Shown: positions 35,476 to 64,000, counted from the first letter of the stretch. The stretch: 64,000 nucleotides of DNA from Chthoniobacterales bacterium (GCA_035274845.1 DATENU010000010.1:124001-188000), one strand, 5' to 3'. Numbers and translations are program-made. Notes: generated by a model from the letters alone, not told the origin.

Positions 35476-36471
35476 ATGATCATTCGCATCCTGTTCCTGC
35501 TCGTTCTCGGCGCCACCGCCGTCTTCGCCTCGTCGGAAGAAAATGTCAGCCAATCGCTCGATGGCGCGCCCGGGGGCCGACTTATTGTCGATGTCGATTT
35601 CGGAACCATCGATGTTGCCGCCGGCGCGGACGACAAAATAACCGTGGCCGCCCATCGGAAGATCGATTCCGACAACGAAGCGCAGGAAAAGGAATATCTC
35701 GCCTCCGCTCCGGTGACGGTGAGCAAAGAAGGCAACACCATCACGGTGCGGGCCCGCCGGCAGGGTAAGGACAAGAACCTAAACTGGTCGGGGCGCTGCA
35801 GTATGGACGCGCGTTACACCGTTCGGGTGCCGAAAAGTTTTAACTCAGAACTGCGCACCGGCGGCGGAACGATCATGGTGGCCGAAATCGCCGGCACCAT
35901 GAGCGCCGACACGAGCGGCGGGAAACTGAAGTTCACCCACCTGAAAGGCCCGACCGGCGCGACGACGAGCGGCGGCAGCATCGAGCTGAACGGATGCGAT
36001 GGCCCTCTTAAAGTGGACACCAGCGGCGGCCGGATCGAAGCGGTCGAGGGGAGCGGTTCCCTCGAGGCGCGGACCTCCGGCGGATCCATCGTGGTCCGGA
36101 ATTTCGCCGGCGACGCGAAGGTGGAAACGAGCGGCGGCCGGCTCGCCTTCGAAAACATCAACGGCAAAATCTTTGGGCGCACCTCCGGCGGATCGATTAG
36201 CGCAAAATTGAAGTCGCCTGTGCCCGGTGACGTGAACCTGGAAACCTCGGCGGGCAGCATCGACGTCATGGTTCCTCTCGATGCCGGTCTCGATGTGGAA
36301 GCGGAAACAAGCTCGGGGCGCGTGACCAGCGACCTGCCCTTTACCGGCACCCGGACGGATCGCGATTCCATGAAAGGAAAAATAAACGGTGGAGGGAAAT
36401 CGCTGGTGCTCCGTTCGGGCGCGGGCAGCATCTCGATAAAACCTTCTTCATCCGAAGTCGCGGCGAAATAG
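35476..36471 (+). CDS. DUF4097 beta-repeat protein, first of the permease cluster (331 aa)
   Basis: Signal peptide [19 protein letters not shown]. The mature part starts [28 protein letters not shown] and runs into periodic strands with TSGG turns every 20-24 residues ([64 protein letters not shown]). This is the right-handed beta-helix typical of DUF4097 'adhesin' domains. The predicted location is periplasm or cell surface. ATG at 35476 is preferred to an upstream TTG. It is 11 bases before the first ADOP permease, with a GGAGG site in that spacer, so the two are probably co-translated in one operon. Confidence 0.9.
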
Positions 36472-36482
36472 ACGGAGGCGCC

Positions 36483-38900
36483 ATGAACGACCTCCGCTTC
36501 GCGCTTCGCCAGCTCCGGAAGACGCCGGGGTTCACTTTCATCGCGGTCCTCACCCTGGCGCTCGGCATCGGGGCGAACACCGCGATCTTTAGTGTCATTT
36601 ACGCGGTCCTGCTCCAGCCGCTTCCGTATCCGCAGGGCGATCGCATCGTCATCCTGACGGAGACGGACCAGAACCAGCCGCAGATTTCCGTGGCGTGGCC
36701 GGATTATGTCGATTGGAAGCGGGACCAGACGGTTTTCGACTCACTGGGCGTCTCGCGACGTGAGTCCTATAATATGAGCGGGCTGGAAGGCCGCGCGCCG
36801 GAACAGGTCTCCGGTGCTCTGGTTACGGCCAGTTTTTTCAAAGTCATCGGACTCTCGCCGCAGCTCGGCCGCGTCTACACCGAGGAAGAGGATCGCGTTG
36901 GCGGACCCACCGTCTGTGTGATCAGCGACAAACTTTGGTCCCGCGTCTTCAACCGCGATCCGAACATCCTCGGCAAATCGGTCAACTTTGGTAACCAGCC
37001 CTACACGGTTATCGGCGTGATGCCGCCGCAGATGTTTTCGCCGCGAACCGTGGAAGTCTGGTTCCCGCTGACCCGCCGGACCGACCACGAGATGTGGCAA
37101 ACGCGGGACAATCACCCCGGGCTGTTCGGTTGGGCGCGATTGAAGGAAGGCGTGACCGCTGAGAAAGCGCTCGCGCAGATGAAGGAATTGGCCGCGCGAC
37201 TCTCCCAGCAATATCCGAAGTCGAACACGAGCGTGAGCGTAACGGTGACGCCGTTACTCGAAAACCAGGTGGGAGATTATCGCGGCAGCCTGAGCCTGTT
37301 GCTTGGCGCGGTAGCGCTGGTCCTTTTGATCGCGTGCGCCAACCTGGCGAATCTGCTCGCGGCGCGGGGCGCGGCGCGCGCGCGAGAGTTCGCAGTCCGC
37401 GCGGCGGTGGGCGCATCACGCTGGCAAATTATCCGGCAATTGTTGATCGAAAGCCTGGCGCTCGCGCTGGTCGGCGGGGGGCTGGGGTTATGTCTCGCGG
37501 CCTGGGGCCGGGATTTGTTGGTGGCGCTGGCGCCGCCGGGAGTGCCGCGCTTCCAAAACATCGCGCTCAACAGCTGGGTCCTCGTTTTCAGCCTCGCCTT
37601 GTCGTTCGTGACCAGCGTGCTCTTCGGGCTCTGGCCCGCTTTGCATACCTCCCGCGCCGACATTCAGCTCGCCCTGAAATCGGGCGGCCACGGCAGCTCG
37701 GAAACGGCCGGCGCGAAACGTTCGCGTGACCTGCTCGTCATCGCGGAAGTCGCGCTCACCCTGATTCTATTGAGCACCGCCGGCCTGGTCCTGAAGAGCT
37801 TCGCGAATGCGCGCAACGTCGGGCTCGGGTTCGATCCGCAGCTGCTTCTCTCCGCGCGAGTCGATCTGCCGGAGCCAAGTTATTCGGACGAAAACAAGGT
37901 TTGGAATTTTCAGCAGGCGCTGCTGGAGAAATTATCGGCACTCCCCGGGGTCCAAAACGCAGCCATCGCTTCGAACCCGCCGCTCATGACCGGCTGGCAA
38001 ACGTCGTTCGTGCCGGAGGGAATGCAGGAACCGGAACCCGGCAAGTTCCCGTCGGCCGAAATGGCGGTGGTAACGGAAGGCTATTTCCAAACGATCAAGA
38101 CGCCGCTGCTCCGCGGGCGCGCGTTCGAGGCGATGGACAAGAAAGGCTCGCCGCCGGTGATCATCGTTTCGCAGCTCTTCGTCGATCGCTATTTCCAGGG
38201 GCAGGACCCGATCGGCAAACACATCCGGATGCACACCGGGGAGAAAGGTGAGAACGAGGACCGGATGATCGTGGGGGTGGTGCCTCACCTGAAGGTTTAC
38301 GGATTCGAGGAGACGGTGATCCTGCCGCAGGCGTATTTGCCGGCGAAACAGATTTCGGCGAACGGGATGGTTGTTCTCCTGCGAACGACGCTCAACCCGA
38401 AGTCGCTCGAGAAACCAGTGCGCGACATCGTGGCGTCGCTCGACGCCTCGCAGCCGGCGTTTGATTTCAAGACGATGCGGGAACGCGTCGAGGAAACGTG
38501 GGCGACGCCACGGCTGATGAGTTTTCTCCTGGCCTGCTTTGCAATTCTTGCCCTCACCCTCGCGATCGTCGGCCTCTACGGCGTGATGGCGTACAACGGT
38601 CTCCGGCGGATGCGCGAGATCGGCGTGCGGCTCGCGCTCGGAGCGATGCCCTCGCAAATCCGGATGATGATGCTGGGGCAGGGAATGCGGCTGCTCATCG
38701 TGGGTCTGGTCGTCGGCTTTGTCGGGGCGGTCGCGTTCTCGCGCGTGATTCGGAGCCTGCTCTTCGGGGTGAACGCGAACGATCCTCTGATCTACGCGGT
38801 CGTCACCTTTGTGCTGATCGTAGCCGCCATCGTCGCCTGCTGGCTGCCGGCCCGCCGGGCCTCCCGCGTTAATCCAATCGTCACTCTGCGCGCTGAATAA
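36483..38900 (+). CDS. ADOP-type duplicated orphan ABC permease 1 (805 aa)
   Basis: Layout of the TIGR03434 ADOP family: N-terminal amphipathic [17 protein letters not shown]1 (about 17-45, [20 protein letters not shown]); a MacB-type periplasmic domain (about 50-245); three FtsX helices from about 270 to 400; then a second TM/periplasmic/FtsX set (about 415-805). Both FtsX modules keep the coupling-loop signature ([13 protein letters not shown] and [12 protein letters not shown]). The C-terminus is [18 protein letters not shown]. In known FtsX/MacB permeases this loop contacts an ATPase; no ATPase gene is adjacent. Family members are 'orphan' by that definition, and their substrate is unknown. 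A good GGAGG precedes ATG 36483. Confidence 0.92.
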
Positions 38901-38916
38901 ACAAAAACGGGAAGCG

Positions 38917-38992
38917 GTGACGAGTGACATGTGACCAGTGATGTGATGAACGGCGATCGAAAATCGAAATTCGAAAATCGGAAATTTTCATG
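38917..38992 (+). repeat. Two phased heptamer tracts upstream of permease 2
   Basis: GTGACGA, GTGACAT, GTGACCA, GTGATGT, GATGAAC fill 38917-38951. Then CGAAAAT, CGAAATT, CGAAAAT, CGGAAAT and TTTCATG fill 38958-38992. The last unit contains the permease-2 ATG, so the start codon is in 7-base register. No Shine-Dalgarno is seen. Confidence 0.9.
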
Positions 38993-41395
38993 AATCTCCG
39001 CTACGCCGTTCGTCAGCTTCGGAAATCGCCGGGATTTACCCTGGTCGCGGTGCTCACCCTCGCGCTCGGCATCGGCGCCAACACCGCCATCTTCACGGTC
39101 GTCAACGCGGTCCTGCTTTCGCCCCTGCCGTATCCGGACGCCGACCGGCTGGTGACGGTCACTTCGCGCAATCCCCAGGAAAATCTGAAAGGCATCGGGT
39201 TCGCTCCTGCCGGCTTCCGCGACGTCGAAAAGCAGGCGACCTCGTTCGAAGCCCTCGGCGGGTCCCGTTACAACTACGATAACCTGACCGGGATCGAAAA
39301 ACCGACGTCCCTCAGCAGCGGACTGGTCACGCAGGATTACTTCAAGGCACTTGGCGAAAAGGCGCTGATTGGCCGGACCTTCACGAGCGAAGACGCAGCC
39401 GGCGGCGCAAAATCGACGGTCGTCCTGAGCTACGACCTCTGGCAGAAACAATTCGGCGGCCGGCGCGAAGTCGTCGGTCAGTCGGTTACCCTCAACGATG
39501 TGCCGACCGAGGTAATCGGCGTCATGCCGCGTACCTTCAAGGACCCGTTCGGGGTCGCCTCGCTCTGGCGGATTTTTCCCAATGAAGGCGGGGAGAACGC
39601 GGTCGCGAACGCGCGTTTCTGGTGGGTGATGGGAAAATTGAAGCCGGGAATTTCCAACACGACCGCCCAGGCAGAGATGTCGACGATCGCCGCGCGCCTG
39701 GCCCAGAACGATCCGAAATTCTACAAAGGCTGGGATTTCGCGATCAGCCCGCTGCGCGATGACGTCATCGGCAGTTATCGGGAAGGTTTGCTGCTGGTGG
39801 TGGGTGCGTCCTTGCTCGTTCTTCTCATTACCTGCGCGAATGTCGCCGGGCTTCAGTTCGTCCGCGCGTCCACGCGGCAGCGGGAAGTCGCCATTCGCCT
39901 CGCGCTCGGGGCAAGCCGGTCCGCGATCGCGCGGGGTCACCTGCTTGAGTCGCTTCTGCTCGTGACGATGGGGGGAATCGGCGGCGTCCTCGTCGGGAGT
40001 TGGGGATTGGATCTGCTGCTGGCCTCGCTCTCCCGCGATTGGATTCCCCGCGGCGACGAGATCGCCCTGAACACGACCGTGCTCGCGGTTACCGGTTTGA
40101 CGGCGCTGATCACCGGCATCGCTTTCGGTCTGTTTCCGGCGCTCTCCGCAACGCGTGTCGAAGCGATCGATTCTTTGCGCGAAGGCAGCAAAGGATCCTC
40201 CGGTTTGCAGTCGGTTCGGCTCCGCGGCGCGCTTGTCGTCGGACAGATCGCGCTGACTCTGGTCCTGCTCGTTTGCGCGGGGCTCGTCTGGAAAAGTTTC
40301 GGCGCCATTGTTCGGGTCAATCCCGGCATCCAGATCGAGAACACGCTCAGCATGGTGCTGACGCTTTCGCCGACTCGTTACGATACCGGCCCGAAGCGGA
40401 CCGATTACTATCACCAGGTCCTCGAACGGATCGGCGCGGTGCCGGGAGTAGAATCGGTCGGATTGACCCAGACGATGCCGTTCACGTGGGGAATCCCGGC
40501 GACTTTCTCGATCTCCGGGGTGCCGGACGACAGCGCGAAACTGCCGCCCGCGTTCTACGACTCTGTGAGCACGTCCTATTTCGCGACGATGCACATTCCA
40601 CTGATCGCGGGACGCTTGTTCACCGAACAGGACAACGACAACGCGCCGAAAGTTATCGTTCTGAGTCACTCGACGGCCCGGAAATTTTTCCCGAACGAGG
40701 ATCCCATCGGAAAACGGTTGATCCTGCCGCCGAGCCGGCAGCAACCGAATCCGACCGCGCTCGAAGTGATCGGCGTGGTCGGCGACGTCCCGCGGAATGG
40801 TTTGAACGCGGTCACGCCTTATCAAGCTTATGCGACCCTGAACCAGCGGGGCATTCCGTTCGCCACCCTGCTGGTTCGGTCGCCGCTTCCAGTTGAGACG
40901 CTCTCCCAAACGATCCAGCGCACGATTTGGGAATTCAATCCCGAGCAAACGATCTCGAACGTGGCGCCAGTGAAGTCGCTCGTGAAATCGAGCCTCACTC
41001 AGCCGCAACTTTATCTCACGCTCTTCAGCCTCTTCGCGGTCCTGGCGTTGCTGCTCGCGGCTATTGGCCTTTACGGCCTCATCGCCTACAGCGTCGCGCA
41101 ACGCACCCGCGAGTTCGGCATTCGCTACGCGCTGGGCGCGCAGGTGCGCGACGTTTTGCGGCTCGTGCTCGGGCAGGGCGCGCGTCTGACCGCTCTCGGG
41201 CTCGTGATCGGTTTGCTCGCGGCCGCCGCGGTCGCGCGTTTGATGGAAACGCTCCTCTTTCGAACGAAAGCCTACGATCCGATTGTTTTCGCCGGCGTGG
41301 CTGTCGTTCTCGCCCTTATTGGCCTGCTCGCCGCGCTCCTCCCGGCGCTCCGCGCCACCAAGGCGGACCCGGTGGCGGCCCTCCGGGCCGAATGA
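38990..41395 (+). CDS. ADOP-type duplicated orphan ABC permease 2 (801 aa)
   Basis: Starts [16 protein letters not shown], one residue shorter at the front than permease 1. The periplasmic domain has its own loop content (RNPQENLKGIGFAPAGFRDVEKQ). The first coupling loop reads RQREVAIRLALGASRSAI. The second is RTREFGIRYALGAQVRDVL, followed by SLLFRTKAYD-type linker residues and the LRAE end. No Walker A or B is present. The TGA overlaps the dipeptidase ATG (ATGA), so permease 2 and the dipeptidase are translationally coupled. Confidence 0.92.
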   Translation: MNLRYAVRQLRKSPGFTLVAVLTLALGIGANTAIFTVVNAVLLSPLPYPDADRLVTVTSRNPQENLKGIGFAPAGFRDVEKQATSFEALGGSRYNYDNLTGIEKPTSLSSGLVTQDYFKALGEKALIGRTFTSEDAAGGAKSTVVLSYDLWQKQFGGRREVVGQSVTLNDVPTEVIGVMPRTFKDPFGVASLWRIFPNEGGENAVANARFWWVMGKLKPGISNTTAQAEMSTIAARLAQNDPKFYKGWDFAISPLRDDVIGSYREGLLLVVGASLLVLLITCANVAGLQFVRASTRQREVAIRLALGASRSAIARGHLLESLLLVTMGGIGGVLVGSWGLDLLLASLSRDWIPRGDEIALNTTVLAVTGLTALITGIAFGLFPALSATRVEAIDSLREGSKGSSGLQSVRLRGALVVGQIALTLVLLVCAGLVWKSFGAIVRVNPGIQIENTLSMVLTLSPTRYDTGPKRTDYYHQVLERIGAVPGVESVGLTQTMPFTWGIPATFSISGVPDDSAKLPPAFYDSVSTSYFATMHIPLIAGRLFTEQDNDNAPKVIVLSHSTARKFFPNEDPIGKRLILPPSRQQPNPTALEVIGVVGDVPRNGLNAVTPYQAYATLNQRGIPFATLLVRSPLPVETLSQTIQRTIWEFNPEQTISNVAPVKSLVKSSLTQPQLYLTLFSLFAVLALLLAAIGLYGLIAYSVAQRTREFGIRYALGAQVRDVLRLVLGQGARLTALGLVIGLLAAAAVARLMETLLFRTKAYDPIVFAGVAVVLALIGLLAALLPALRATKADPVAALRAE

Positions 41396-42525
41396 ACGCC
41401 ATGGTGACACGTCGTGAATTTACGAGGTCTTTGGGCGGCGCCGCAGCCATCGCTGCGCTCACGCCCATTTTGACCTGGGCGGCGGACGACGCGAAAATAT
41501 CGGCGGAGGCCGCGAAGATTTATCGCGATTCCTTCATTCTCGACGGGAACGCGCTGGCCTCGATCGGCTGGCTGCTCACCCGGCCGAACCAGGAGGAGAT
41601 CACGAAGGGAATCCGCGACTCCGGGATTACCGCGGTCAAGGCGACGCTCGGCGGCGCCATGGGCGATTTCGCCAGCACCGTGGCCGATATCGCCAAGGCG
41701 GACCAGCTCATGGAGAAGCGGCCCGAGCTCTTTCTCAAAGTGCGCATCGCCGCCGATTTCGATCGGGCGCGTTCCGAGAAAAAACTCGGCGTCATCTATT
41801 CGTTCGAATCCGCCGCCATGCTCGAGGACAAGATCGAGCGGATCGAAACTTTTCGCGGACTCGGCGTGCGAGTGATGCAGCTCAATTACAATCGGCGCAC
41901 GCCGTTTGGAGTCGGTTGCCTCGACGGCGAGACGGATGGGCTGACCGACCTCGGCCGGCAGGCGATCGCGAAGATGAATGAGCTTGGCGTCGCGCTGGAC
42001 CTAAGCCATTCCAACACCCAAACGACGGCCGACGGCATCGCCGCTTCGAGCAAGCCGCCGCTGATCACCCACGCCGGTTGCCGCGCCATTTATCAGCATC
42101 CGCGAAACAAGGAGGACCGGGAGCTCAAGGCGCTCGCGGACAAGGGAGGCGTCGTGGGCATTTACATGCTGCCCTACATCACGGCTTCGCCGAAGCAGCC
42201 CATGCGCGACGATTACCTCCAACACCTGGAGCACGCCCTCAAGGTTTGCGGCGAGGACCATGTCGGGATCGGAAGTGACGTTTCCTTCTTCGAAGTCGGC
42301 GAGAGCGACCTGGCGGAGATGAAGAAGGACACCGAAAAGCGGAAGGCGGATGGGATCGCCGCTCCGGGCGAAGATCGGCCGACCTACATCCCGGACCTCA
42401 ACACGCCGCGGAAAATGGAGCTGATTGCCGACGCGCTCCTGAAACGCGGCCACAAGACCGCGGCCGTAGAAAAAATTCTCGGCGCCAATTTCAAACGAGC
42501 TTTTGGGGACATATGGACCACCTGA
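41392..42525 (+). CDS. Tat-exported M19-type dipeptidase, variant metal site (377 aa)
   Basis: Twin-arginine motif TRREFTRSLGG precedes a hydrophobic segment (AAAIAALTPILTWAA), so export folded through Tat is predicted. The TIM-barrel of renal/membrane dipeptidases (peptidase M19) follows. The family motif D-G-H-N-D is D-G-N-A-L here (residues 51-55), so both ligands of the HxD pair are missing. Glu139 (YSFESAAM), His206 (LDLSHSN) and His227 (LITHAGCRA) are retained, as are LTDLGRQAIAKMNELGV and GIGSDVSF. Activity is therefore in doubt, or relies on a single metal. It sits between permeases 2 and 3; spacing downstream is 41 bases. ATG at 41392 is used; ATG 41401 is possible. Confidence 0.88.
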   Translation: MNAMVTRREFTRSLGGAAAIAALTPILTWAADDAKISAEAAKIYRDSFILDGNALASIGWLLTRPNQEEITKGIRDSGITAVKATLGGAMGDFASTVADIAKADQLMEKRPELFLKVRIAADFDRARSEKKLGVIYSFESAAMLEDKIERIETFRGLGVRVMQLNYNRRTPFGVGCLDGETDGLTDLGRQAIAKMNELGVALDLSHSNTQTTADGIAASSKPPLITHAGCRAIYQHPRNKEDRELKALADKGGVVGIYMLPYITASPKQPMRDDYLQHLEHALKVCGEDHVGIGSDVSFFEVGESDLAEMKKDTEKRKADGIAAPGEDRPTYIPDLNTPRKMELIADALLKRGHKTAAVEKILGANFKRAFGDIWTT

Positions 42526-42534: not shown

Positions 42535-42569
42535 CGAAATTCGAAAATTGAAAATCGAAAATTAATATG
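42535..42569 (+). repeat. CGAAAAT-type heptamer tract before permease 3
   Basis: CGAAATT, CGAAAAT, TGAAAAT, CGAAAAT, TAATATG: five exact 7-base units, the last holding the ATG of permease 3. Confidence 0.9.
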
Positions 42570-44990
42570 CACGACCTTCGCTTCGCCTTCCGCCAACTCC
42601 GGAAATCGCCCGGCTTCACCATCATCGCGGTGCTCACCCTTGCGCTCGGCATCGGTGCGAACTCCGCCATCTTCAGCGTGGTTAACCACGTTCTGCTTCG
42701 GCCGCTGCCGTATCCACAACCGGAGCGGCTCGTTTATCTGAACGAAGTGATCAACGGCACCGACACGTCGATCGCGCTGCCGGATTACGTCGACTGGCGT
42801 AACGACAGCAAGTCATTTGAGCATCTCGCGATGAGCCGGTTGGAGTCGCGCAACATCGGCGGCCTTGCCGGCGGGCAACCGGAGCGAATCTCCGTCGCGT
42901 ACGTGACCGCCAATTTTTTCAGCGTAATCGGTCTGCAGCCGCAGCTCGGCCGGACCTTTACCGAAGATGAAGACAAGCCCGGTGCACCGCCGCTCGCGAT
43001 TATCAGCGATCGGATCTGGGACCGCGTCTTTCATCGCGACCCGAAAATCGTTGGGCAGCCGATGGAATTTCACGGCACCCCGGTCACGGTCATTGGCGTT
43101 ATGCCGCGCGAGATGGATTCGCCGCACGGTGTTGACGCGTGGTTCGCGGTGATGCGCCGCGCGGCGAATCCCGGGTGGCAGAACCGGGCCAATCACCCAA
43201 TGTTCTTCGGCTGGGGCCGGCTCAAGCAGGGCGTGACAGTCGAACAGGCGCGGAGCGAGATAAAAGCAATCTCCGCCCGTCTCGAAAAAGTTTATCCGGC
43301 CACCAACACCGGTGTGGGAGCAAACGTCCGTCCGCTCCTCGACAATCTTCTCGGCAATTACCGAACGAGCCTCGCCCTGCTTTTGGGCGCGGTTGCGGTG
43401 GTTTTGCTCATCGCCTGCGCGAACTTAGCGAATCTCCTGGCCGTGCGTGGGGCCGCACGCGCCCGGGAGTTTGCGGTTCGCGCAGCGATGGGTGCCGGGC
43501 GCGGCCAGATCGTGCGCCAGCTATTGCTCGAGAGCTTTGTCATTTCCACAATCGGCGGCGCGCTCGGATTGATCTTCGCCACCTGGGGACGAGACGCTCT
43601 CGTCGCTTTCGCTCCGGCTGGCGCGCCGCGCTTCGAAGGGATCGGATTCGACTGGCGGGTGTTGGCGTTCACTTTTCTCCTGGCGACATTAACCACGATT
43701 TTGTTCGGACTCTGGCCCGCCTGGCAGGCGGCGCGGACCGACATCAACACCGCGCTCCAAGCCGGCTCGCATGGAAGCTCGGAAACGAAATCTGCGCGCC
43801 GGAGCCGCGACTGGCTCGTGGTCGTCGAGGTGGCGTTGACGTTGTTGCTCCTGACCGCGGCTGGCCTTGTCCTCAAGAGCTTTGCGAAAATGCAGTCGAC
43901 GCGGCTCGGCTTCGATCCGCAGGACATGCTCACGGTTCGAATCGAAATGCCGTTCACAAAATATACGGAGCTGCAGCCGATCTTAAATTTCACGAACAGT
44001 TTGCTCGGCGAAGTCCGCAAGCTGCCGGGAGTGCAAAGGGCGGCCCTCTCTGCAAACCCGCCGATGCTCAGCGGTTGGCAGCTCAGTTTCATGCCGGAAG
44101 GCGCACCGCCGACCGATCCCAGCCAGCAACCGTCGGCCGATTATGAAGTCGTGCAGGGCGATTATTTCGCCACCCTCAAAATAAACCTGATTCGCGGACG
44201 AACCTTCGACGAACGCGATCGCGTCGATTCGCCGCCGGTTGTCATTATCGACCAGTTACTGGCCGACACGACATTCAAGGGCCAGGATCCGATCGGGAAG
44301 CGGCTGATGGTTGATACGGAATCGGATGTGGTCGAAGGCGGTCAGCGGCTTTACGAGATCGTCGGCGTTGTGCCACATCTGAAGATGCGCGGCTACGACG
44401 ACGCAATGCCGACCCCGGCGTTTTTCTTTCCGGAAACACAGATTGGCCGCACGAATCTTACTCTGCTCGTCCGGGGCTCCGGCAACGTGAAGCGCCTCGA
44501 GAAACCGATTCGCGATATCGTCGCCCGGCTCGATCCAACTCAGCCAGTCTTCGATGTCCGTTCGATGGAAGAACGCGTGGCCGAAACATGGGCGACGCAA
44601 CGGCTGCTCTCGTTCCTGCTCACGATCTTCGCGGGGCTTGCGTTACTCCTCGCTGCCGTCGGGTTGTATGGGGTGCTGGCTTACAGCGCGACGCGGAGAC
44701 TGCGAGAAATCGCGGTGCGGCTCGCGCTTGGAGCGCGCCCCGCGCACATCCGTGGGTTAGTCATGGGCCACGGGCTGCGGCTGTTTGGCATCGGCATCGT
44801 CGTTGGCGCCCTCGCTGTCCTTGCGTCCGCCAGCGTCATTCGCAGCTTTCTCTTCGGCGTTTCGCCGCTGGATGCGCAGACCTACCTGATGGTCGGCCTG
44901 ATCCTTTCCGTCGTCACCATCCTGGCCGCGTGGCTCCCCGCCCGCCGCGCCTGCCGGGTCAACCCCATTGTCGCTCTTCGAGCGGAATAA
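42567..44990 (+). CDS. ADOP-type duplicated orphan ABC permease 3 (807 aa)
   Basis: Starts [17 protein letters not shown]. By eye it is the closest paralogue of permease 1: shared [14 protein letters not shown], the loop before the first FtsX helices ([27 protein letters not shown]) and the late [20 protein letters not shown]. The second coupling loop is [18 protein letters not shown]. It ends [16 protein letters not shown]. Only two bases separate it from permease 4, whose initiation must depend on reinitiation or coupling. Confidence 0.92.
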
Positions 44991-47415: not shown

Positions 47416-47450
47416 GTGACATGTGACGAGTGACAAGTGACGAGATGATG
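47416..47450 (+). repeat. GTGACNN heptamer tract before permease 5
   Basis: GTGACAT, GTGACGA, GTGACAA, GTGACGA, GATGATG: five 7-base units with the start codon(s) ATG 47445/47448 inside the last one. Confidence 0.9.
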
Positions 47451-54821: not shown

Positions 54822-54879
54822 GTGACATGTGACGAGATGAACCAATTGAATCGAAAACCGAAAATCGAAAATTCCCATG
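54822..54879 (+). repeat. Mixed heptamer tracts before permease 8
   Basis: GTGACAT, GTGACGA, GATGAAC (54822-54842) then CGAAAAC, CGAAAAT, CGAAAAT, TCCCATG (54852-54879). The second block has the permease-8 ATG in register. Confidence 0.85.
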
Positions 54880-57291
54880 AAAGACTTCCGCTACGCTCTG
54901 CGCCAGCTGCTTCGCCAGCCTGGTTTCACCATTATCGCCGTCGTCGCGCTCGCGCTCGGGATTGGCGCGAACACCGTCCTCTTTTCCGCGATCAACACCC
55001 TCTTTCTGCGCCCGCTCTCCTATCCGGAGCCGCAGCAGCTCGTCCGCGTCTGGGGTTCATTCCCGGAACGCGGGCTCGATCGCGCGAATGTTTCCTGGCC
55101 GCGTTTCCAGGCCTGGCGCGATCAACAGCAGAGCTTCACGGAGTTTTCCGCGCAGTCGTTTACCGGTTTCACCATGACCGGCCGGGGCGAACCGCAGAAC
55201 GTCAACGGCGTTCGGATCACTGAGAATTTTTTCCGCGCGCTCGGACTCCAGCCGCTTTTTGGCCGCATGTTCACGCCGGAGGAAGACAAGCCCGGTGGTG
55301 CGAATGTAGCGGTTCTTACCCATTCGTTCTGGCAAAAACAATTCGGCGGGGACCAAAACATCCTCGGGCAATCAGTCACGCTCAACGGAGTGCCCTACAC
55401 CGTCATCGGCATTCTGCCGGCCTCGCTGAAGTTTCCGTTTATTCAAACCCACATTTTTATCCCGCGCGTGTTTGACCAGGAGGGAATACCGGCCGACATC
55501 CGAGACCGCGGCACCGGTTATCTCACGATTCTCGCCCGAATGAAGCCGGGAGTGACCAAGGAGCAGGCCGAGCAACAGATGCGGATCGTCGATCACCGTT
55601 ACCAAACGGCGCAGCCGGACAAGGTGGACGCCAAGGCCGGGATGAGCGTGGTCTCGCTGCATGAAGATCTCGTTGGCCGCCAGCGTCCGATGTTGCTTAC
55701 CCTTTTCGCCGCGGTTGGCTGCGTTTTGCTGGTCGGTTGCGCCAACGTCGCGAATCTGATGCTGGCCCGGTTCATGGGTCGCCGGAAAGAGATCGCCATC
55801 CGGACCGCGCTTGGCGCGACCCGGGCGCGCATCATCTTCCAATTCCTGGCGGAAAGCATTCTAACCGCCGCAATCGCGGGCGTCCTGGGAGTCTTGCTCT
55901 CAATCTGGGGACTCGATCTCCTGAAAAAGGTCGTGGAAGACTTCCTGCCTCGGGCTCGTGAGATCTCGCTCGACGTCAACGTGCTCCTGTTTGCGATCGG
56001 CCTTTCGCTCATCACCGGCATCATCCTCGGCCTGGTCCCGGCGCTCCACGCGTCGCGAAGCGATCCGATCGATTCGCTGAAGGATTCCTCGCGCGGCAGC
56101 ACCGGACGCCAGGCAGGGCGCTTGCGCGCCGGATTGCTCATCGCCGAAGTCGCTCTCTCGCTCGTCCTCGTCGTCGGCGCGGTCTTGCTGGTCGACAGTT
56201 TCCGGCGTCTGCAAAACGTCGATCCCGGTTTTCGCGCCCAGGGAGTGACGACCTTCTTCGTCGGTTTGCCGCCCGGCTCTTATCCGGATGAGGAACGCCA
56301 GGCCTTGTTCTTCCAAAACGCGATCGACAAGATCAAGGCGCTCCCCGGCATCACAAACGCCTCCGCCGGCTCGAATCTTCCCGCCTCCGATAACGGCAAC
56401 ACGCGGTCGCCCGCCGCGGTGGAAGGCCGGCCGGTGCCAGCGGTGAGCGATCGACCTCTCGCGGTGCGCTCCACCACCAGCCCCGGCTTTTTCGAAACCC
56501 TCGGGATTCCGATCAAACAAGGCCGCGACTTCACCTGGCAGGATCGCCCGAACGCTCCGCTCGTCGTGATCATCAACGAAACGATGGCGAAGAAATTGTT
56601 CCCCGGCGAAAACCCCATCGGCCGGCGTTTGATTACCGGGATCGCTTCGATCCCGCGCGAGATCGTCGGCGTCTCCGGCGACGTGCGGGCGGAGAACCTA
56701 TCCCTGCCGCCGGGACTGGAAATGTATTATCCGGCCGCCCAAATCGACGGCGCGTTCCTCAGCGTGATCGTGCGGAGCGAACGTCCGGCTTCGAGCCTGC
56801 GCTCGGAGTTGATCGGGGCCGTTCATTCGCTCGATCCGGGATTGCCGATCGACCAGGTCCAATCCTACACTGAACTGCTTTCCAATGCTTCGGCCGATCG
56901 CCGGCTGATGATGTATCTCCTCGGCGGATTCGCCGGCCTCGCGCTGGCTCTCGCCGGGATGGGAATTTATAGCGTCATCGCCTATGGCGTGGCCCAGCGG
57001 ACAAACGAATTTGGAATTCGTTTCGCGCTCGGCGCCGCAACCCGCGACGTGATTGGGCTGGTGATGAAGGAGGGCCTGCGCCTCTCGATCGTTGGACTGG
57101 TCGTCGGCGTTGGACTTTCGCTGGCCGTCACCCGGTTGATGCAGCGGCTCCTTTTTGAGGTAAGCCCGCGCGATCCGTGGCTCTACGGCGGCGTGGCGCT
57201 TTTCATCTGCGCCGTCGCCGCGCTCGCTTGTCTGGTTCCGGCGATGCGCGCGACGCGGATCGATCCGATGCAGGCGCTGAGGACAGAGTGA
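54877..57291 (+). CDS. ADOP-type duplicated orphan ABC permease 8 (804 aa)
   Basis: Starts MKDFRYALRQLLRQPGF. It pairs with permease 7 by the loop GCANVANLMLARFMGRRKEI and AIRTALGATRARII, and by the second-domain segment SAGSNLPASDNGNTRSP and SPGFFETLGIPIKQGRDF. The second coupling loop is QRTNEFGIRFALGAATRDVI. It ends RIDPMQALRTE. A charged basic stretch lies at the first membrane interface (KKVVEDFLPRAREI). Confidence 0.92.
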   Translation: MKDFRYALRQLLRQPGFTIIAVVALALGIGANTVLFSAINTLFLRPLSYPEPQQLVRVWGSFPERGLDRANVSWPRFQAWRDQQQSFTEFSAQSFTGFTMTGRGEPQNVNGVRITENFFRALGLQPLFGRMFTPEEDKPGGANVAVLTHSFWQKQFGGDQNILGQSVTLNGVPYTVIGILPASLKFPFIQTHIFIPRVFDQEGIPADIRDRGTGYLTILARMKPGVTKEQAEQQMRIVDHRYQTAQPDKVDAKAGMSVVSLHEDLVGRQRPMLLTLFAAVGCVLLVGCANVANLMLARFMGRRKEIAIRTALGATRARIIFQFLAESILTAAIAGVLGVLLSIWGLDLLKKVVEDFLPRAREISLDVNVLLFAIGLSLITGIILGLVPALHASRSDPIDSLKDSSRGSTGRQAGRLRAGLLIAEVALSLVLVVGAVLLVDSFRRLQNVDPGFRAQGVTTFFVGLPPGSYPDEERQALFFQNAIDKIKALPGITNASAGSNLPASDNGNTRSPAAVEGRPVPAVSDRPLAVRSTTSPGFFETLGIPIKQGRDFTWQDRPNAPLVVIINETMAKKLFPGENPIGRRLITGIASIPREIVGVSGDVRAENLSLPPGLEMYYPAAQIDGAFLSVIVRSERPASSLRSELIGAVHSLDPGLPIDQVQSYTELLSNASADRRLMMYLLGGFAGLALALAGMGIYSVIAYGVAQRTNEFGIRFALGAATRDVIGLVMKEGLRLSIVGLVVGVGLSLAVTRLMQRLLFEVSPRDPWLYGGVALFICAVAALACLVPAMRATRIDPMQALRTE

Positions 57292-57332: not shown

Positions 57333-59933
57333 ATGATCCAGGATTTTCGTTTCGCGTTTCGTCAGCTTTGGAAAACGCCCGGATTTACGATCGCGGCCAT
57401 CGCCGTGCTCGCGCTCGGAATTGGCGCCAACAGCGCGGTCTTTAGCCTTGTCCACACGATTCTGTTCGCGTCGCCAGGTTATGCGCGCCCCGCGGAAGTG
57501 CTGAAGATCTACTCGCAGGATAAGACAAACCCGAACAGTTTCCGCGCGTTTTCCTATCCCAATTTCCTCGATATCAGGCAGGACAGGACGGCTTTCAACG
57601 ACGTGCTGGCCTACCAGATGGTGAAAATCGGGATTGGCGACAAGGGCGACACCCGTCGCGCCATCGGGAATGTGGTGAGCTCAAACTTCTTCTCCGTCCT
57701 GGGGGTGGCTCCCGTGCTTGGCCGCGCGTTTTTGCCGGAGGAAGAAACGCCGGGCCGCGGCACGCGAGTCGCCGTAGTGAGCTATAACTATTGGAAAAAG
57801 CACGGCGGAAATCCTGCCATTCTCGGATCGCAGATCACGCTGAACGGCCGCCCCTTCACGGTCGTAGGCGTCGCGCCGGAGGGTTTCACCGGCACGATGC
57901 ACCTCTTTGGAACCGAGGTGTGGTTGCCGCTCGGCGCCCGCGAAGATGCCATGAAAGCCTTCGAAGCGGCTGATAGGACCGCGTTCGGTGACCGGGCCGG
58001 CCGGCATTTGATGCTGGTCGGGCGATTGAAGCCGGGCGTAACCAAAAAAGCGGCGGAGGCGGTGCTTAAAGGCATCGCCATGAATCTCGAGCAGGCCTTC
58101 CCAGTCGAGCAGAGAGATCAAACATTTATCGCGGGCCCCTTGCCGCGCTTCAGCACAAGCAACACCCCGTATGGAGAGATCCAGGTCTTCTCCGCGCTCG
58201 CCGCCCTCCTCTTCGGTATGTCGGCAGTCGTGCTCCTGGTCGCTTCGCTCAATCTCGCCAACATGCTCCTCGCTCGGGGCACAGCGCGCCGGAAGGAGAT
58301 TGCTATTCGTCTCGCGCTGGGCGCCGGTCGCGGTCGGATCGTTCGCCAGTTGCTCACCGAAGGACTCGTCCTCGCGGTGCTCGGTGGCGCCGCCGGGATT
58401 ATCCTCGCGCTCTGGTCGTCGGACCTGCTGGTCGCGTCGCTGGGTCAAATCCTGCCGATTGATCTGATCTGGTTCGGCGGTCCAAATCCAATGCTCGTCG
58501 CCGCGACTCTGGTGTTCTCCGTCATTGGAACAGTCTGCTTCTCGTTAGGGCCGGCGCTGAAACTGTCCCGCGCCGCCCTGCTCGACGACCTGAAAGAACA
58601 TGCGGGCGAAGACGTGGTCGTGCGCCGCTGGAAATTTCTGCCGCGCAATCCGCTTGTCGTAGTCCAGTTCGCTGTTTCGCTCGCGCTGGTCACGGCCGCG
58701 GCGCTTTTCATTCGCGGCGCCGGAAAGGCCGTCAATATCGACACCGGCCTGAAGATGGAGCGCACATTCCTGGTCGAAGTCGATGCGAGCCTCGGCGGAT
58801 ATGGTCGAGCGCGTGCCCAGGAGCTTTATCGGACGGTCGAAGAGAAGTTGTCGGCGCTGCCCGGCGTGGAAAGCGCCAGCATTTCCGCGACGATGCCGTT
58901 TGGCATGTTTTCGGCCGGCAGGCGCGTGCAACGGGCGGGTTTTCAACCGCCCCCGGATGCAAAACCTGCTCCCGCAGCTGATGGGCTGGCAGATGACGCC
59001 GGGTGGTCCAGGTGGGCCAGCGTGGGCGCGAACTATTTCAAGACGGCCGGCTTGCCTCTGCTGCGCGGCCGCATCTTCACCACCGCCGAGGCGACGCAGT
59101 CCGGCGGACCAGCGGTCGCGATTACAGATGAGACCCTCGCAAAAAAGCTCTGGCCCGAAGGTGATGCTTTGGGCCAGCGACTGCAAATCGCACGAGAGAA
59201 TGGGCCGAAAGCGGAAGAGGACGGCCGGAGCGGAGCCAGTGCTGCGGAGGCGAAAGGTGACATCGCGCCCGGTGATAGCCTAGAAGTGATCGGCATCGTG
59301 CCGCACACGCCCGACGCCTTCACCGATACAGAGTCGGTGAATTGGATATACGTTCCGTTCTCGCGCTCGTTCCAGAGTGACATCTACTTCCTGGTAAAAT
59401 TTTCGCCGCTTCCGCGCGGAGGCGAAGCGGACGCCGCGGCTCTGTTGCGCCGCACCATCGCCTCGGTCGATTCCGCACTGCCGATCCTCTCAATCCAGAC
59501 ATTCGAGCAGCTCCTCGAAGGCCATTTGCAGCTCTGGCTTATTAAAGCTGGGGCGGCGGTGTTTTCCGTCTTCGGCGCCCTCGCGCTCGGGCTCGCGGTC
59601 GTCGGCTTGTATGGGGTGAAAGCGTACTCCGTCGCGCGCCGCACACGTGAAATCGGCATTCGTATGGCGCTCGGCGCCCAACCCGCCACGGTGCAGCGCA
59701 TGATTTTGCGGGAAGGATCCGTCATGCTGGCGACCGGACTGGTGCTCGGGCTGCTGCTCGCGCTCGTGACCGGACAAATCGTGGGCAGTTTGCTCTACCA
59801 GGTCAGTTCGCTTGACCCGCTTGCGTTCACCGTTGCGCCAATGGTCCTGACGCTCGCCGGCTTGATCGCGACATGGCTGCCCGCGCGCCGCGCCACCAAG
59901 ATCGATCCGATGACAGCATTACGGACGGAGTGA
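57333..59933 (+). CDS. ADOP-type permease 9, long form (866 aa)
   Basis: Starts MIQDFRFAFRQLWKTPGF. Together with permease 10 it forms a second pair: shared FRAFSYP, RLKPGVTKKAAE or analogous, LLVASLNLANMLLARGTARRKEIAIRLALGAGRGRIV and YSVARRTREIGIRMALGAQPATV. It is about 60 residues longer than the others. The extra length lies mainly in the first periplasmic domain and in a charged insert in the second (GPKAEEDGRSGASAAEAKGD). It ends TKIDPMTALRTE. A GAGGAAA Shine-Dalgarno is present. Confidence 0.92.
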   Translation: MIQDFRFAFRQLWKTPGFTIAAIAVLALGIGANSAVFSLVHTILFASPGYARPAEVLKIYSQDKTNPNSFRAFSYPNFLDIRQDRTAFNDVLAYQMVKIGIGDKGDTRRAIGNVVSSNFFSVLGVAPVLGRAFLPEEETPGRGTRVAVVSYNYWKKHGGNPAILGSQITLNGRPFTVVGVAPEGFTGTMHLFGTEVWLPLGAREDAMKAFEAADRTAFGDRAGRHLMLVGRLKPGVTKKAAEAVLKGIAMNLEQAFPVEQRDQTFIAGPLPRFSTSNTPYGEIQVFSALAALLFGMSAVVLLVASLNLANMLLARGTARRKEIAIRLALGAGRGRIVRQLLTEGLVLAVLGGAAGIILALWSSDLLVASLGQILPIDLIWFGGPNPMLVAATLVFSVIGTVCFSLGPALKLSRAALLDDLKEHAGEDVVVRRWKFLPRNPLVVVQFAVSLALVTAAALFIRGAGKAVNIDTGLKMERTFLVEVDASLGGYGRARAQELYRTVEEKLSALPGVESASISATMPFGMFSAGRRVQRAGFQPPPDAKPAPAADGLADDAGWSRWASVGANYFKTAGLPLLRGRIFTTAEATQSGGPAVAITDETLAKKLWPEGDALGQRLQIARENGPKAEEDGRSGASAAEAKGDIAPGDSLEVIGIVPHTPDAFTDTESVNWIYVPFSRSFQSDIYFLVKFSPLPRGGEADAAALLRRTIASVDSALPILSIQTFEQLLEGHLQLWLIKAGAAVFSVFGALALGLAVVGLYGVKAYSVARRTREIGIRMALGAQPATVQRMILREGSVMLATGLVLGLLLALVTGQIVGSLLYQVSSLDPLAFTVAPMVLTLAGLIATWLPARRATKIDPMTALRTE

Positions 59934-59959: not shown

Positions 59960-59971
59960 GAGGAGAGAGCA

Positions 59972-62533
59972 ATGATTAACGATTTCCGCTTCGCATTTCG
60001 ACAGCTCTGGAAAGCGCCGGGGTTTACCATCGCAGCCGTCATCGTGCTCGCGCTCGGGATTGGGGTAAACACGGCGATCTTTAGCCTGGTTAACGTCATG
60101 GTGTTGCAGCCGCCGCCCTACCAGCGGCCGGCCGAGGTCGTGCAGCTCTTTTCCCAGGACAAGAAGGACCCGAAAAACTTCCGCGCCTTTTCCTATCCGA
60201 CCTACCGCGATATTCGCGATCAGAACACGGTCTTCTCGGGCTTGCTGGCGCATGACGAAAGCGTCGTGGGGATCGGGGAAAAGGGAAACTTTCGCCGCGC
60301 GGTGGTCGACATCGTCAGCTCGAATTACTTCTCGGTCCTGGGCGTGATGCCGGCCTACGGACGTTCGTTTCTTCCCGAAGAAGAGAAACCCGGCGTGGGG
60401 ACGCGCGTCGCGGTGGTGAGTTACAGCTATTGGCAAAAACGTGGGCGCGATCCTTCGCTGCTCGGGAGCGCGCTGCTGATCAACGGCCAGGCCTACAATG
60501 TAATCGGGATCATGCCGGAAGGATTTACCGGGACAGAGAGCGTCTTTTCCCGGGAAGCGTGGCTGCCTCTCGGAGTCTATGACGAGATCATGAGTGCTCA
60601 GGGGGCCGCACGAAGCAGCTCTTTGAGCGACCGCGGGAGCGAACGCCTGATGATTATCGGCCGGTTCAAACCGGGAGTCACGGCCGAGACAGCCCTGCCG
60701 GCTTTGAAAGGTCTCGCCAACAATCTCGAGGCGGCATTTCCCGTCGAACAAAAAGATCAGACTTTTCTTAGCGCGCCGCTCAACAAATTCGCCACGAGCA
60801 CCGCTCCTTCCGAAAACGATCCGGTCCCCACCATCGGCGCCCTGCTCGTCGCGATGGCGGGCGTGGTCCTGCTCGTCGCCTGTTTAAACCTGGCCAACAT
60901 GCTGCTCGCGCGCGGGACAGCGCGCCGGAAAGAAATCGCGGTCCGTCTCGCGCTCGGCGGAAGCCGCGCCCGCATCGTCAGGCAACTTCTCACGGAGGGG
61001 TTTGTGCTCGCGCTGCTCGGAGGGGCGGGTGGGTTGCTCCTCGGCCTTTGGTCATCCGACCTGCTCGTTGCTTCGCTGAGCAGGATTTTGCCCATGGACG
61101 TCGTCTGGTTGAGCGGATCCGACCCGATGGTTCTGGCCGCGACCCTCGGCTTCTGCTTTGTGGGAACAATCTGTTTTGCGCTCGGCCCGGCGTTGAGCCT
61201 TTCGCGCGCTGCGGTCATCGAAGATTTGAAACAACAAGCTGGCGAAGACGCGTTCCGGCCACGCTGGAAATTTCTGCCGCGCAATCCGCTGGTCGTGGTG
61301 CAGATCGCCTTTTCTCTTGCCCTGCTCACGGCCGCCGCTCTCTTCGTTCGAGGCGCTGCGAGCGCGGCTGCGGTTGAGACAGGGTTTAAGGCGAAGAATG
61401 TTTTCCTGGTCGAACTCGATGCGAGCCTCAGCGGCTTCGATCAAAAGCGCGCCCTCGATCTCTACCGAATGGTCGGCGAAAGATTTGCCGCGTTGCCCGG
61501 AGTGCAGCACGCCGGTGTCTCGGCCACGGTTCCGTTTGGAATCAACACGGTCCGGCGCAGCGTGCTTCGCGCAGGTCTTTCGCCCGCTCCCGAGAACAAA
61601 CCGGCCACCGCAGCTGAAGGACGAACCTTTAGCCCATTCTGGAACAGCGTGGGCGCGGATTATTTCGCGGCCGTCGGATTGCCGTTGCTTCGTGGCCGGG
61701 CTTTTACCGTTGCGGAGGTCACCGAAACCGGCGGACCGGCGGTGGCAGTCATTGACGAAGTCCTGGCGAAAAAATTGTGGCCCGATGGTAATGCCCTGGG
61801 GCAAAGCATCCAGTTCCCGGTGCGGGAAGGCGCTGCGCCGGAAAAAACCGAGGAGAACAGCGGCCAGATCAAGCGGGGCGAGCCGATCCGAATCATCGGC
61901 ATTGTGCCGGCGATCAAGAACCGGTTGTTCGAAAAGGAGCCACTTGGTTCTCTCTATTTGCCTTTTGCGCGCGGCTTTCAAAGCGACGCGTTCTTCTACG
62001 TGAAATTTGCCTCGCTCGGCAGCGAATCAGCCACGGCGGACCTTCTGCGCCGCACGGTGCAAAACGTCGACCCGCTCCTTCCGGTTTTGGAACTGCGGAC
62101 GTTTGAAAAACACATGGATGGCAATCCGCAGCTCTGGATTGTCCGCGCCGGGGCCGCGTTGTTTTCTATTTTCGGCGCCCTGGCCCTCGGCCTGGCGGTG
62201 GTAGGCGTCTATGGCGTGAAAGCGTATTCCGTGGCGCGGCGCACGCGTGAGATCGGCATCCGAATGGCGCTCGGCGCCCAAGGCAAGACGGTGCAGTGGA
62301 TGATCCTGCGCGAAGGCTTCGTCATGGTCGCGGCGGGCGTTGTTCTTGGATTTCTCCTCGCGCTCGGCACCGGAAAAATCGTCAGCGCCATTCTTTTCCA
62401 GGTCAGCTCGACTGATCCTTTCGCTTTAATAATCGCCCCCGCGGTCCTGATGGCCGCGGCTTTGCTCGCCACGTGGCTGCCCGCGCGGCGCGCCACCAAA
62501 ATTAGCCCCATGGCAGCACTGAGAACGGAATGA
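59972..62533 (+). CDS. ADOP-type permease 10, long form (853 aa)
   Basis: Starts MINDFRFAFRQLWKAPGF. Paralogue of permease 9 (see its shared loops: LLVACLNLANMLLARGTARR and [36 protein letters not shown]). The charged insert in the second periplasmic domain is shorter and different (PVREGAAPEKTEENSGQI). The conserved QDKKDPKNFRAFSYP segment matches permease 9's QDKTNPNSFRAFSYP. It ends TKISPMAALRTE. It is followed 38 bases later by the second DUF4097 gene. Confidence 0.92.
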   Translation: MINDFRFAFRQLWKAPGFTIAAVIVLALGIGVNTAIFSLVNVMVLQPPPYQRPAEVVQLFSQDKKDPKNFRAFSYPTYRDIRDQNTVFSGLLAHDESVVGIGEKGNFRRAVVDIVSSNYFSVLGVMPAYGRSFLPEEEKPGVGTRVAVVSYSYWQKRGRDPSLLGSALLINGQAYNVIGIMPEGFTGTESVFSREAWLPLGVYDEIMSAQGAARSSSLSDRGSERLMIIGRFKPGVTAETALPALKGLANNLEAAFPVEQKDQTFLSAPLNKFATSTAPSENDPVPTIGALLVAMAGVVLLVACLNLANMLLARGTARRKEIAVRLALGGSRARIVRQLLTEGFVLALLGGAGGLLLGLWSSDLLVASLSRILPMDVVWLSGSDPMVLAATLGFCFVGTICFALGPALSLSRAAVIEDLKQQAGEDAFRPRWKFLPRNPLVVVQIAFSLALLTAAALFVRGAASAAAVETGFKAKNVFLVELDASLSGFDQKRALDLYRMVGERFAALPGVQHAGVSATVPFGINTVRRSVLRAGLSPAPENKPATAAEGRTFSPFWNSVGADYFAAVGLPLLRGRAFTVAEVTETGGPAVAVIDEVLAKKLWPDGNALGQSIQFPVREGAAPEKTEENSGQIKRGEPIRIIGIVPAIKNRLFEKEPLGSLYLPFARGFQSDAFFYVKFASLGSESATADLLRRTVQNVDPLLPVLELRTFEKHMDGNPQLWIVRAGAALFSIFGALALGLAVVGVYGVKAYSVARRTREIGIRMALGAQGKTVQWMILREGFVMVAAGVVLGFLLALGTGKIVSAILFQVSSTDPFALIIAPAVLMAAALLATWLPARRATKISPMAALRTE

Positions 62534-62539
62534 AGGAAG

Positions 62540-63651: not shown

Positions 63652-63695
63652 CGCGATTCTATAGTTGCCTTACCCTCCGAATGAGCTCCGCCATT

Positions 63696-63730
63696 CGAAA
63701 ATCGAAAATCGAAAATCGGAAATTCCCATG
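63696..63730 (+). repeat. CGAAAAT-type heptamer tract before permease 11
   Basis: CGAAAAT three times, CGGAAAT, TCCCATG. The ATG at 63728 is in register. The 76-base gap before it (63652-63727) holds nothing else recognisable. Confidence 0.9.
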
Positions 63731-64000
63731 AGCGATCTTCGTTACGCCTTTCGTCAACTACGCAGAGCTCCCGGATTCACCGCGACGGCGCTCGCGACGA
63801 TCGCGATCTGCCTCGGCGCGAACCTGGCGATCTTCGCTGTGGTCAATTCCATCCTTCTCCAGCCGCTCCCGTTTCCGAATGCCGATCGGCTCGTCTCGAT
63901 TTACAACACCTATCCGAACGCCGGCGTGGAAAACGACGGATGCTCGCTCACGAATTACTACGAACGTCGCGGCAACATTCCCGCCTTCTCCAGCCTTTCG
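63728..64000 (+). CDS. ADOP-type permease 11 (5' part, runs off the window)
   Basis: The 91 codons read MSDLRYAFRQLRRAPGFTAT, then ALATIAICLGANLAIFAVVN and SILLQPLPFPNADRLVSIYN. This is the amphipathic N-terminus, TM1 and entry to the MacB-type periplasmic domain of the family. TM1 is a little more diverged (IAICLGANLAIFAV instead of [14 protein letters not shown]). It shows that the array continues beyond the window. Confidence 0.9.
   Translation, partial: MSDLRYAFRQLRRAPGFTATALATIAICLGANLAIFAVVNSILLQPLPFPNADRLVSIYNTYPNAGVENDGCSLTNYYERRGNIPAFSSLS

What the first reader, a model, noticed from the sequence alone, without database searches (positions are those of the whole stretch)
35476..64000. 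28-kb tandem array of eleven ADOP-type permeases with no ATPase
Ten complete and one truncated duplicated FtsX/MacB-like permeases stand on one strand, broken only by two DUF4097 genes and a dipeptidase, with gaps from -4 to 89 bases. No Walker A/B gene is present anywhere in 64 kb. Both FtsX modules in most copies keep the R-E-x-x-x-R-x-A-x-G-A coupling-loop signature, which in MacB/LolCDE-type transporters docks on the ATPase. So these are likely real transporters or mechanotransmission devices sharing an ATPase encoded elsewhere. Each polypeptide has two FtsX modules, enough for a complete transmembrane dimer. One operon of this size would commit much membrane capacity to an unknown substrate set.
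Basis: partly seen in the sequence, partly recalled or inferred. Interest (0 to 1): 0.8.

Follow-up and report, generated by a model that had tools for sequence, protein, structure and literature searches.

The report
Permease library sharing one distant ATPase
A soil bacterium carries a 51-kb row of nineteen duplicated membrane permeases with no energy-supplying partner beside them, and comparison across hundreds of genomes indicates that these long-orphaned "ADOP" permeases are ABC exporters that draw on one conserved ATPase module encoded elsewhere in the genome.

Summary
The array is real and larger than reported: 19 complete ADOP permeases (TIGR03434) on one strand over 50.7 kb, of which the window holds ten and the start of an eleventh, plus two DUF4097 genes and an M19 dipeptidase. 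No ABC ATPase lies in it or beside it. ADOP is a known family of unknown function, named for lacking an ATPase. What is new is a candidate partner. In this genome seven other ADOPs sit in a second cluster: response regulator, kinase, adaptor, ATPase ATP1, ADOPs, ATPase ATP2, ADOPs. Across 289 genomes of the phylum, ADOPs above cut-off and ATP1 orthologs occur in exactly the same 19. ATP1 heads a run of 22 ADOPs in one complete genome. In one Bryobacteraceae genome the adaptor-ATP1-ATP2-two-component module stands with no ADOP nearby, while at least 60 ADOPs lie elsewhere. The array's ATPase-docking helix is the most conserved 13-residue stretch of the proteins, the genes are under purifying selection, and array lineages interleave with ATPase-linked lineages in the tree. 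Best reading: pseudo-dimeric MacB/YbbP-like (type VII) ABC exporters energised in trans by a shared ATPase module. Binding and transport are untested; substrates are unknown.

The parts
35476..36471 (+). DUF4097 (Toastrack, LiaG-like) protein with N-terminal signal-like segment; first gene of the array, conserved in that place in five congeners
   Evidence: PF13349 41.9 bits; ortholog heads the array in G002, G003, G005, G006, G007; ATG start
36483..38900 (+). ADOP 1 (C10:160483)
   Evidence: TIGR03434 947 bits; dN/dS 0.10-0.13 to congeners
38990..41395 (+). ADOP 2 (C10:162990)
   Evidence: TIGR03434 881 bits; dN/dS 0.10-0.12
41392..42525 (+). M19 membrane dipeptidase-family enzyme
   Evidence: PF01244 227 bits; 4-base overlap with ADOP 2; no full-length ortholog found in the five congener arrays
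42567..44990 (+). ADOP 3 (C10:166567)
   Evidence: TIGR03434 937 bits
44993..47407 (+). ADOP 4 (ORF C10:168588)
   Evidence: TIGR03434 976 bits; ATG at 44993
47448..49901 (+). ADOP 5 (ORF C10:171430)
   Evidence: TIGR03434 767 bits; dN/dS 0.10-0.11
49924..52347 (+). ADOP 6 (C10:173924)
   Evidence: TIGR03434 958 bits
52391..54814 (+). ADOP 7 (C10:176391)
   Evidence: TIGR03434 863 bits; nearest far relative in an ATP1-headed operon of G010
54877..57291 (+). ADOP 8 (C10:178877), the one modelled by AlphaFold2: 8 TM helices, coupling helices at residues 303-311 and 709-717
   Evidence: TIGR03434 950 bits; model pLDDT 82.5, pTM 0.71; best PDB match YbbP, then MacB
57333..59933 (+). ADOP 9 (C10:181333)
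   Evidence: TIGR03434 740 bits; groups with an ATP1-headed ADOP of G037
59972..62533 (+). ADOP 10 (C10:183972)
   Evidence: TIGR03434 758 bits
62572..63651 (+). second DUF4097 (Toastrack) protein
   Evidence: PF13349 23.9 bits, cut-off 22.9
63728..64000 (+). ADOP 11, cut by the window edge; complete in the genome (ORF C10:187665-190154). ADOPs 12-19 follow up to C10:210213, outside the window
   Evidence: TIGR03434 768 bits for ADOP 11 and 764-1038 for ADOPs 12-19
30141..32662 (+). Histidine kinase and OmpR-type response regulator upstream; possible regulator of the array (directly upstream of it in congener G006, not seen upstream in G005)
   Evidence: Pfam; G006_C10 and G005_C27 maps

Best explanation
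Each ADOP is a single-chain pseudo-dimer of a MacB-type (type VII) ABC permease: eight TM helices, two MacB-like periplasmic domains, and two cytoplasmic coupling helices. The array is a library of 19 such permeases, with different periplasmic parts and presumably different substrates, and no motor of its own. The motor is supplied in trans by a conserved module encoded once elsewhere (here C24:197067-199181 and 182362-183105): adaptor (MFP), ATPase ATP1 and a second ATPase ATP2, next to an NtrC-type two-component system. Two ATPase subunits would dock on the two coupling helices, close on ATP, zip up the helix bundle and drive a periplasmic stroke that pushes substrate through the adaptor toward an outer-membrane channel, as in MacAB-TolC. 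Shown: gene content, fold prediction, coupling-helix conservation, purifying selection, exact ATP1/ADOP co-occurrence, and ATP1-headed arrays in relatives. Inferred: ATP1 (with or without ATP2) physically energises the array's permeases; export rather than another mechanical task; an ATP1-ATP2 heterodimer; substrates; role of the DUF4097 proteins.
For: (a) Same genome: seven ADOPs above cut-off lie in a cluster with RR, HK, MFP, ATP1 and ATP2. (b) Profile over 289 genomes: ADOP over cut-off in 19, ATP1 ortholog (71-100% id, E<=1.6e-104) in the same 19 and in none of 270 others, where the best ATPase is 53% identical; Fisher 10^-29, and within one family 15/15 versus 0/10, p = 3e-7. (c) One motor, many permeases: complete genome G117 has a run of 22 ADOPs (29 on one strand in 131 kb) headed by ATP1, with no other ABC ATPase inside. 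In a Bryobacteraceae genome MFP-ATP1-ATP2-RR-HK stands with no ADOP within the 20.7 kb fetched, while at least 60 ADOPs lie on other contigs and ATP1 is single. (d) In the ATPase-less array the C-module coupling helix is the most conserved of 726 thirteen-residue windows (entropy 0.62 versus mean 1.86 bits); 10 of 47 invariant columns lie in or at the two coupling segments. (e) dN/dS of array members 0.08-0.18, like ATPase-linked ones 0.06-0.20. (f) Array and ATPase-linked ADOPs interleave in the tree: 16 label changes for the array, at least 11 forced by starred branches. (g) Model: two MacB units in tandem, best PDB match YbbP; sequence profile hits MacB at 2.5e-40.
Against: No binding or transport data. 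Co-occurrence is partly linkage, because ATP1 usually sits next to some ADOPs, and the 19 positive genomes fall in only three families. Genome G012 (87% complete) has ADOPs but no ATP1 ortholog above 49% identity. Other MacB/LolD-type ATPases exist in the genome, three of them without an adjacent permease found, and could serve instead. The Bryobacteraceae genomes are fragmented MAGs of unstated completeness.
Confidence: 0.72

Rival explanations
1. The array's permeases are energised promiscuously by other MacB/LolD-type ATPases of the genome (LolD-like C11:283253, C14:27007, C15:144281, or the MacB-like ones), and ATP1/ATP2 serve only their neighbours.
For: Three LolD-like ATPases have no FtsX permease found beside them; all ATPases of this superfamily dock on similar coupling helices (PMC5985334).
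Against: These ATPases score best as LolD, and a LolC/E-type permease that needs such an ATPase exists elsewhere in the genome. MacB-superfamily ATPases other than ATP1 occur in genomes without ADOPs, whereas ATP1 tracks ADOPs exactly. Array lineages have sister lineages inside ATP1-headed operons.
Confidence: 0.13
2. The array's ADOPs work without any ATPase, as sensors, scaffolds or envelope parts that kept the permease fold.
For: Family name and original description (ADOP, 'orphan'; from memory); no ATPase within or near the array; DUF4097/Toastrack genes, a stress-sensing domain, lie in the array (PMC11237479).
Against: The ATPase-docking helix is the most conserved part of the array proteins, which an ATPase-free protein would have no clear reason to keep; relatives are ATPase-linked.
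Confidence: 0.1
3. The array is a decaying or silent tandem expansion.
For: Copy number varies from about 6 to 19 among congeners and a few congener copies are split or truncated.
Against: All 19 are full-length open frames above the family cut-off; dN/dS about 0.1 for orthologs at dS about 1; deep, separate lineages shared among congeners.
Confidence: 0.03

Closest known systems
ADOP family duplicated permease (NCBIfam TIGR03434)
   Same: All 19 array proteins match the full model above its curated cut-off; double permease; large paralogous family; no ATPase beside the array.
   Different: A conserved ATPase/adaptor/two-component module is shown to go with the family; ATPase-linked members exist in the same genome and heads of arrays elsewhere carry ATP1.
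E. coli YbbP of YbbAP-TesA (type VII ABC, PDB 9GE6)
   Same: Single chain with two FtsX modules, two periplasmic domains and two coupling helices; best fold match over the full length; separate ATPase gene.
   Different: YbbP has two extra linking TM helices (PMC12646458) that the ADOP model lacks (8 TM); YbbA is encoded next to its one permease.
MacAB-TolC
   Same: Permease fold and topology, coupling-helix motif, MacB-like periplasmic domain; the ADOP cluster also has an MFP adaptor (TIGR01730 over cut-off).
   Different: MacB carries its ATPase on the same chain and works as a homodimer; ADOP is a fused pseudo-dimer with a separate ATPase.
Darobactin exporter DarBCD and similar two-permease operons in Bacteroidota and Gammaproteobacteria
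   Same: ATP1 and ATP2 score best against DarD; order adaptor, ATPase, double permease(s), often with a two-component system.
   Different: All scores are below the equivalog cut-offs (ATP1 250 of 375; adaptor 82 of 450); one or two permeases per operon, not libraries.
Shared-ATPase importers (MsmK, FhuC, MceG)
   Same: One ATPase gene energises several separately encoded permeases (PMC4519317, PMC10147376, PMC9947336).
   Different: Those are importers with few permeases; here a type VII export-like family with up to dozens of permeases per ATPase.

Membership tests
ADOP (TIGR03434) | Full-length match above curated cut-off | tested here: met
   All 19 array members, 740-1038 bits versus 622.3
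ADOP (TIGR03434) | Internal duplication: two FtsX and two MacB_PCD stretches | tested here: met
   Two stretches of each in the members scanned; two hits for most genes genome-wide
ADOP (TIGR03434) | No associated ATP-binding gene (trait recalled from the family's original description) | tested here: inconclusive
   Met for the array; not met for seven ADOPs on C24 and for ATP1-headed clusters elsewhere, so the trait does not hold for the whole family
Type VII ABC superfamily (MacB/LolCDE/FtsEX/YbbAP) | 4-TM unit with large periplasmic domain between TM1 and TM2 and coupling helix between TM2 and TM3 | tested here: met
   AlphaFold2 model, Foldseek to YbbP/MacB/LolCDE, profile to MacB 2.5e-40
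Type VII ABC superfamily (MacB/LolCDE/FtsEX/YbbAP) | Works in complex with ATPase subunits | not testable with these tools
   No multi-chain folding or biochemistry; indirect support only
MacB proper | ATPase fused at the N-terminus of the permease | tested here: not met
   No ABC_tran in the array or its permeases; PRK10535 (MacB) scores 84-154 of 966
YbbP-type fused permease | Two TM helices linking the two halves | tested here: not met
   Model goes from the first half's last TM (367-393) through a short helix to TM1' (411-446) with no extra TM pair
Dar exporter | Equivalog scores for DarB/DarC/DarD | tested here: not met
   DarB at most 55 of 700 for ADOPs; DarC 82 of 450; DarD 250 of 375

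The most novel reading that the evidence does not exclude
A one-to-many type VII ABC system: a single ATPase pair (ATP1, plus ATP2 with a conserved His in place of the D-loop Asp) and one adaptor energise a library of 20 to over 60 interchangeable pseudo-dimeric permeases scattered over the genome, with permease genes moving freely between ATPase-linked and orphan positions.
Probability: 0.5. Interest if true: 0.82.

Novelty: new variant of a known kind. Interest (0 to 1): 0.62.

Why it matters
ADOPs are among the larger gene families of some soil Acidobacteriota (41 in this 4.5-Mb genome, at least 60 in two Bryobacteraceae), yet they have stood as orphans of unknown function; the open-access library searched holds one paper that names the family, only as a gene count. 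Naming a single conserved ATPase/adaptor module that tracks the family gives a direct test: one gene to delete, one protein to pull down. If the sharing is real, it is the type VII counterpart of shared-ATPase importers and would mean that a large share of the export capacity of these soil bacteria hangs on one motor.

Tried and rejected
ATPase beyond the window: no ABC ATPase up to C10:219295, which is MlaF-like on the other strand. Fresh tandem duplication: rejected, only three sister neighbour pairs. Assembly artefact: rejected, array with the same lead gene in five congeners. ATPases upstream of the congener arrays: the one in G005 has its own single FtsX permease by eye; the similar one in G007 was not read. 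Literature on ADOP function: nothing found; the Solibacter paralog paper (PMC3174227) does not treat these permeases in the passages found. Promoter scan: uninformative, counts at or below shuffles.

Full report
OBSERVATION. The window is contig C10:124001-188000 of a 4.54-Mb, 24-contig genome assembly; the closest named relatives of its ATPase are mostly Acidobacteriota, so it is most likely an acidobacterium. It continues past the window to C10:210213: 19 complete permeases in 50.7 kb. All 19 are ADOP family members above the TIGR03434 cut-off. No ABC ATPase occurs in the window, in the rest of the array, or within 9 kb of its end; the next one is MlaF-like and on the other strand.

WHAT THE PROTEINS ARE. 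A model of ADOP 8 (pLDDT 82.5, pTM 0.71) has two consecutive MacB-like units: TM1, periplasmic domain, TM2, coupling helix, TM3, TM4, short terminal helix, then the same again, without linking TM helices. The best solved match over the whole length is E. coli YbbP, then MacB and LolCDE; the sequence profile hits MacB at 2.5e-40. In MacB the major coupling helix lies between TM2 and TM3 and contacts the ATPase, and a C-terminal minor helix does so too (PMC5985334). In the 19 array proteins the C-module coupling helix is the most conserved 13-residue stretch of the whole protein (mean entropy 0.62 bits, protein mean 1.86, lowest of 726 windows); the N-module helix is well above average (59th lowest of 726). 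The seven ATPase-linked ADOPs show the same pattern. Ten of 47 invariant columns in a 19-member alignment fall in or at the two coupling segments.

WHERE THE ATPASE IS. The genome holds 41 ADOP-type double permeases: 19 in the array, 7 in a cluster on C24, 15 dispersed, two of the dispersed ones behind PadR genes. The C24 cluster reads: NtrC-type response regulator, kinase, RND-type adaptor, ATP1, two ADOPs, an alpha/beta hydrolase, three ADOPs, ATP2, two ADOPs, a protein with a weak LiaG (DUF4097-type) match. ATP1 and ATP2 are MacB-superfamily ATPases, best scored as DarD-like but below that equivalog's cut-off. ATP1 is 95-97% identical among congeners. ATP2 orthologs carry His where ATP1 has the D-loop Asp (NLHS against NLDS; SLHT in one) in every ATP2 read except an Ignavibacteria relative, which has Asn; the other motifs are intact. 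That asymmetry would suit a heterodimer, which is inference.

DO THEY BELONG TOGETHER? In 289 genomes of the phylum, ADOP above cut-off occurs in 19 and an ATP1 ortholog in the same 19; in all 270 others the best ATPase is at most 53% identical. Within one family the split is 15/15 against 0/10, so it is not simply a phylum-level marker, although three families hold all positives. Among the 20 nearest relatives one genome (G012, 87% complete) has ADOPs without an ATP1 ortholog. The order RR-HK-adaptor-ATP1-ADOPs recurs, wholly or in part, in other families and in a MAG labelled Opitutia. In complete genome G117 a run of 22 ADOPs (29 on the same strand in 131 kb) is headed by that module with no other ABC ATPase inside. 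In Bryobacteraceae MAG LS_FP_2_bin.112 (G305) the module adaptor-ATP1-ATP2-RR-HK has no ADOP anywhere in the 20.7 kb fetched; at least 60 ADOPs were scored on other contigs, and ATP1 is single-copy. That is the arrangement a trans-acting shared ATPase predicts.

IS THE ARRAY IN USE? Orthologs of array members in congeners show dN/dS of 0.08-0.18, the range of ATPase-linked members (0.06-0.20). The array is led by the same DUF4097 gene in five congeners, with about 6 to 13 ADOPs, and no ATPase was found between its genes there. In a tree with ADOPs from ATP1-headed operons of other genomes, the array label needs 16 changes, at least 11 forced by well-supported branches; array lineages 181333, 176391, 178877, 187665/190198, 195143, 202543/205083 and 207760 each group with an ATP1-linked ADOP from another genome. 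Array genes are therefore relatives of ATPase-linked genes many times over, not one separate ATPase-free branch. This tree was built by a short search, with several long branches flagged.

MECHANISM. The best-supported account: ADOPs are single-chain pseudo-dimers that recruit ATPase subunits from a shared pool, ATP1 with or without ATP2, through their two coupling helices, and work by MacB-type mechanotransmission, probably with the shared adaptor. YbbAP supplies the precedent for a fused pseudo-dimer with two separate ATPase subunits (PMC12646458); MsmK, FhuC and MceG for one ATPase serving several permeases (PMC4519317, PMC10147376, PMC9947336; titles and abstracts seen, the rest from general knowledge). 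Toastrack/DUF4097 domains have been linked to envelope-stress operons, two-component systems and ABC permeases, and HAAS-PadR modules to an FtsX/MacB_PCD protein (PMC11237479), so a regulatory role in envelope stress is plausible but untested. Substrates are unknown.

LIMITS. No complex could be modelled and nothing is biochemical. The profile is partly linkage, since ATP1 usually neighbours some ADOPs. Three LolD-like ATPases of this genome have no permease found beside them and remain alternative motors. Several comparison genomes are fragmented MAGs, and the ADOP searches score a limited number of candidates per genome, so counts there are lower bounds. The claim that the family was defined as ATPase-less rests on recall of its description; the tool shows only its name.

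VERDICT. New variant of a known kind, interest 0.62.

Noticed in passing
C24:182362-183105 (L009:12362-13105) and orthologs: ATP2 orthologs read have His (Asn in one distant relative) in place of the D-loop Asp while Walker A, signature and Walker B motifs are intact, hinting at an asymmetric ATP1-ATP2 pair.
   Followed up: partly
   Followed up: partly
L131 (Opitutia MAG), L072 (Lysobacteraceae MAG), L073 (Gemmatimonadetes MAG): ATP1-type modules at 72-82% identity in contigs assigned to other groups; horizontal transfer or misbinning.
   Followed up: no
window 32663-33822: A DUF433 gene overlapping a short gene that looks like a DUF5615-type PIN partner (toxin-antitoxin-like pair; the second by eye only) between the two-component genes and the array; in congener G006 the two-component genes lead straight into the array.
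   Followed up: no
window 33994-35163, - strand: 389-aa reading frame next to the array head with no Pfam match.
   Followed up: no
L019:6446-9450, L013:13692-16686, L024:7456-10080: Dispersed ADOPs with about 80-residue N-terminal extensions, two of them directly behind PadR genes; likely the HAAS-PadR arrangement described in PMC11237479.
   Followed up: partly
G007:C18, G006:C10, G002:C1 arrays (L151-L156): A few split or truncated ADOP frames in congener arrays, either gene decay or assembly errors.
   Followed up: no
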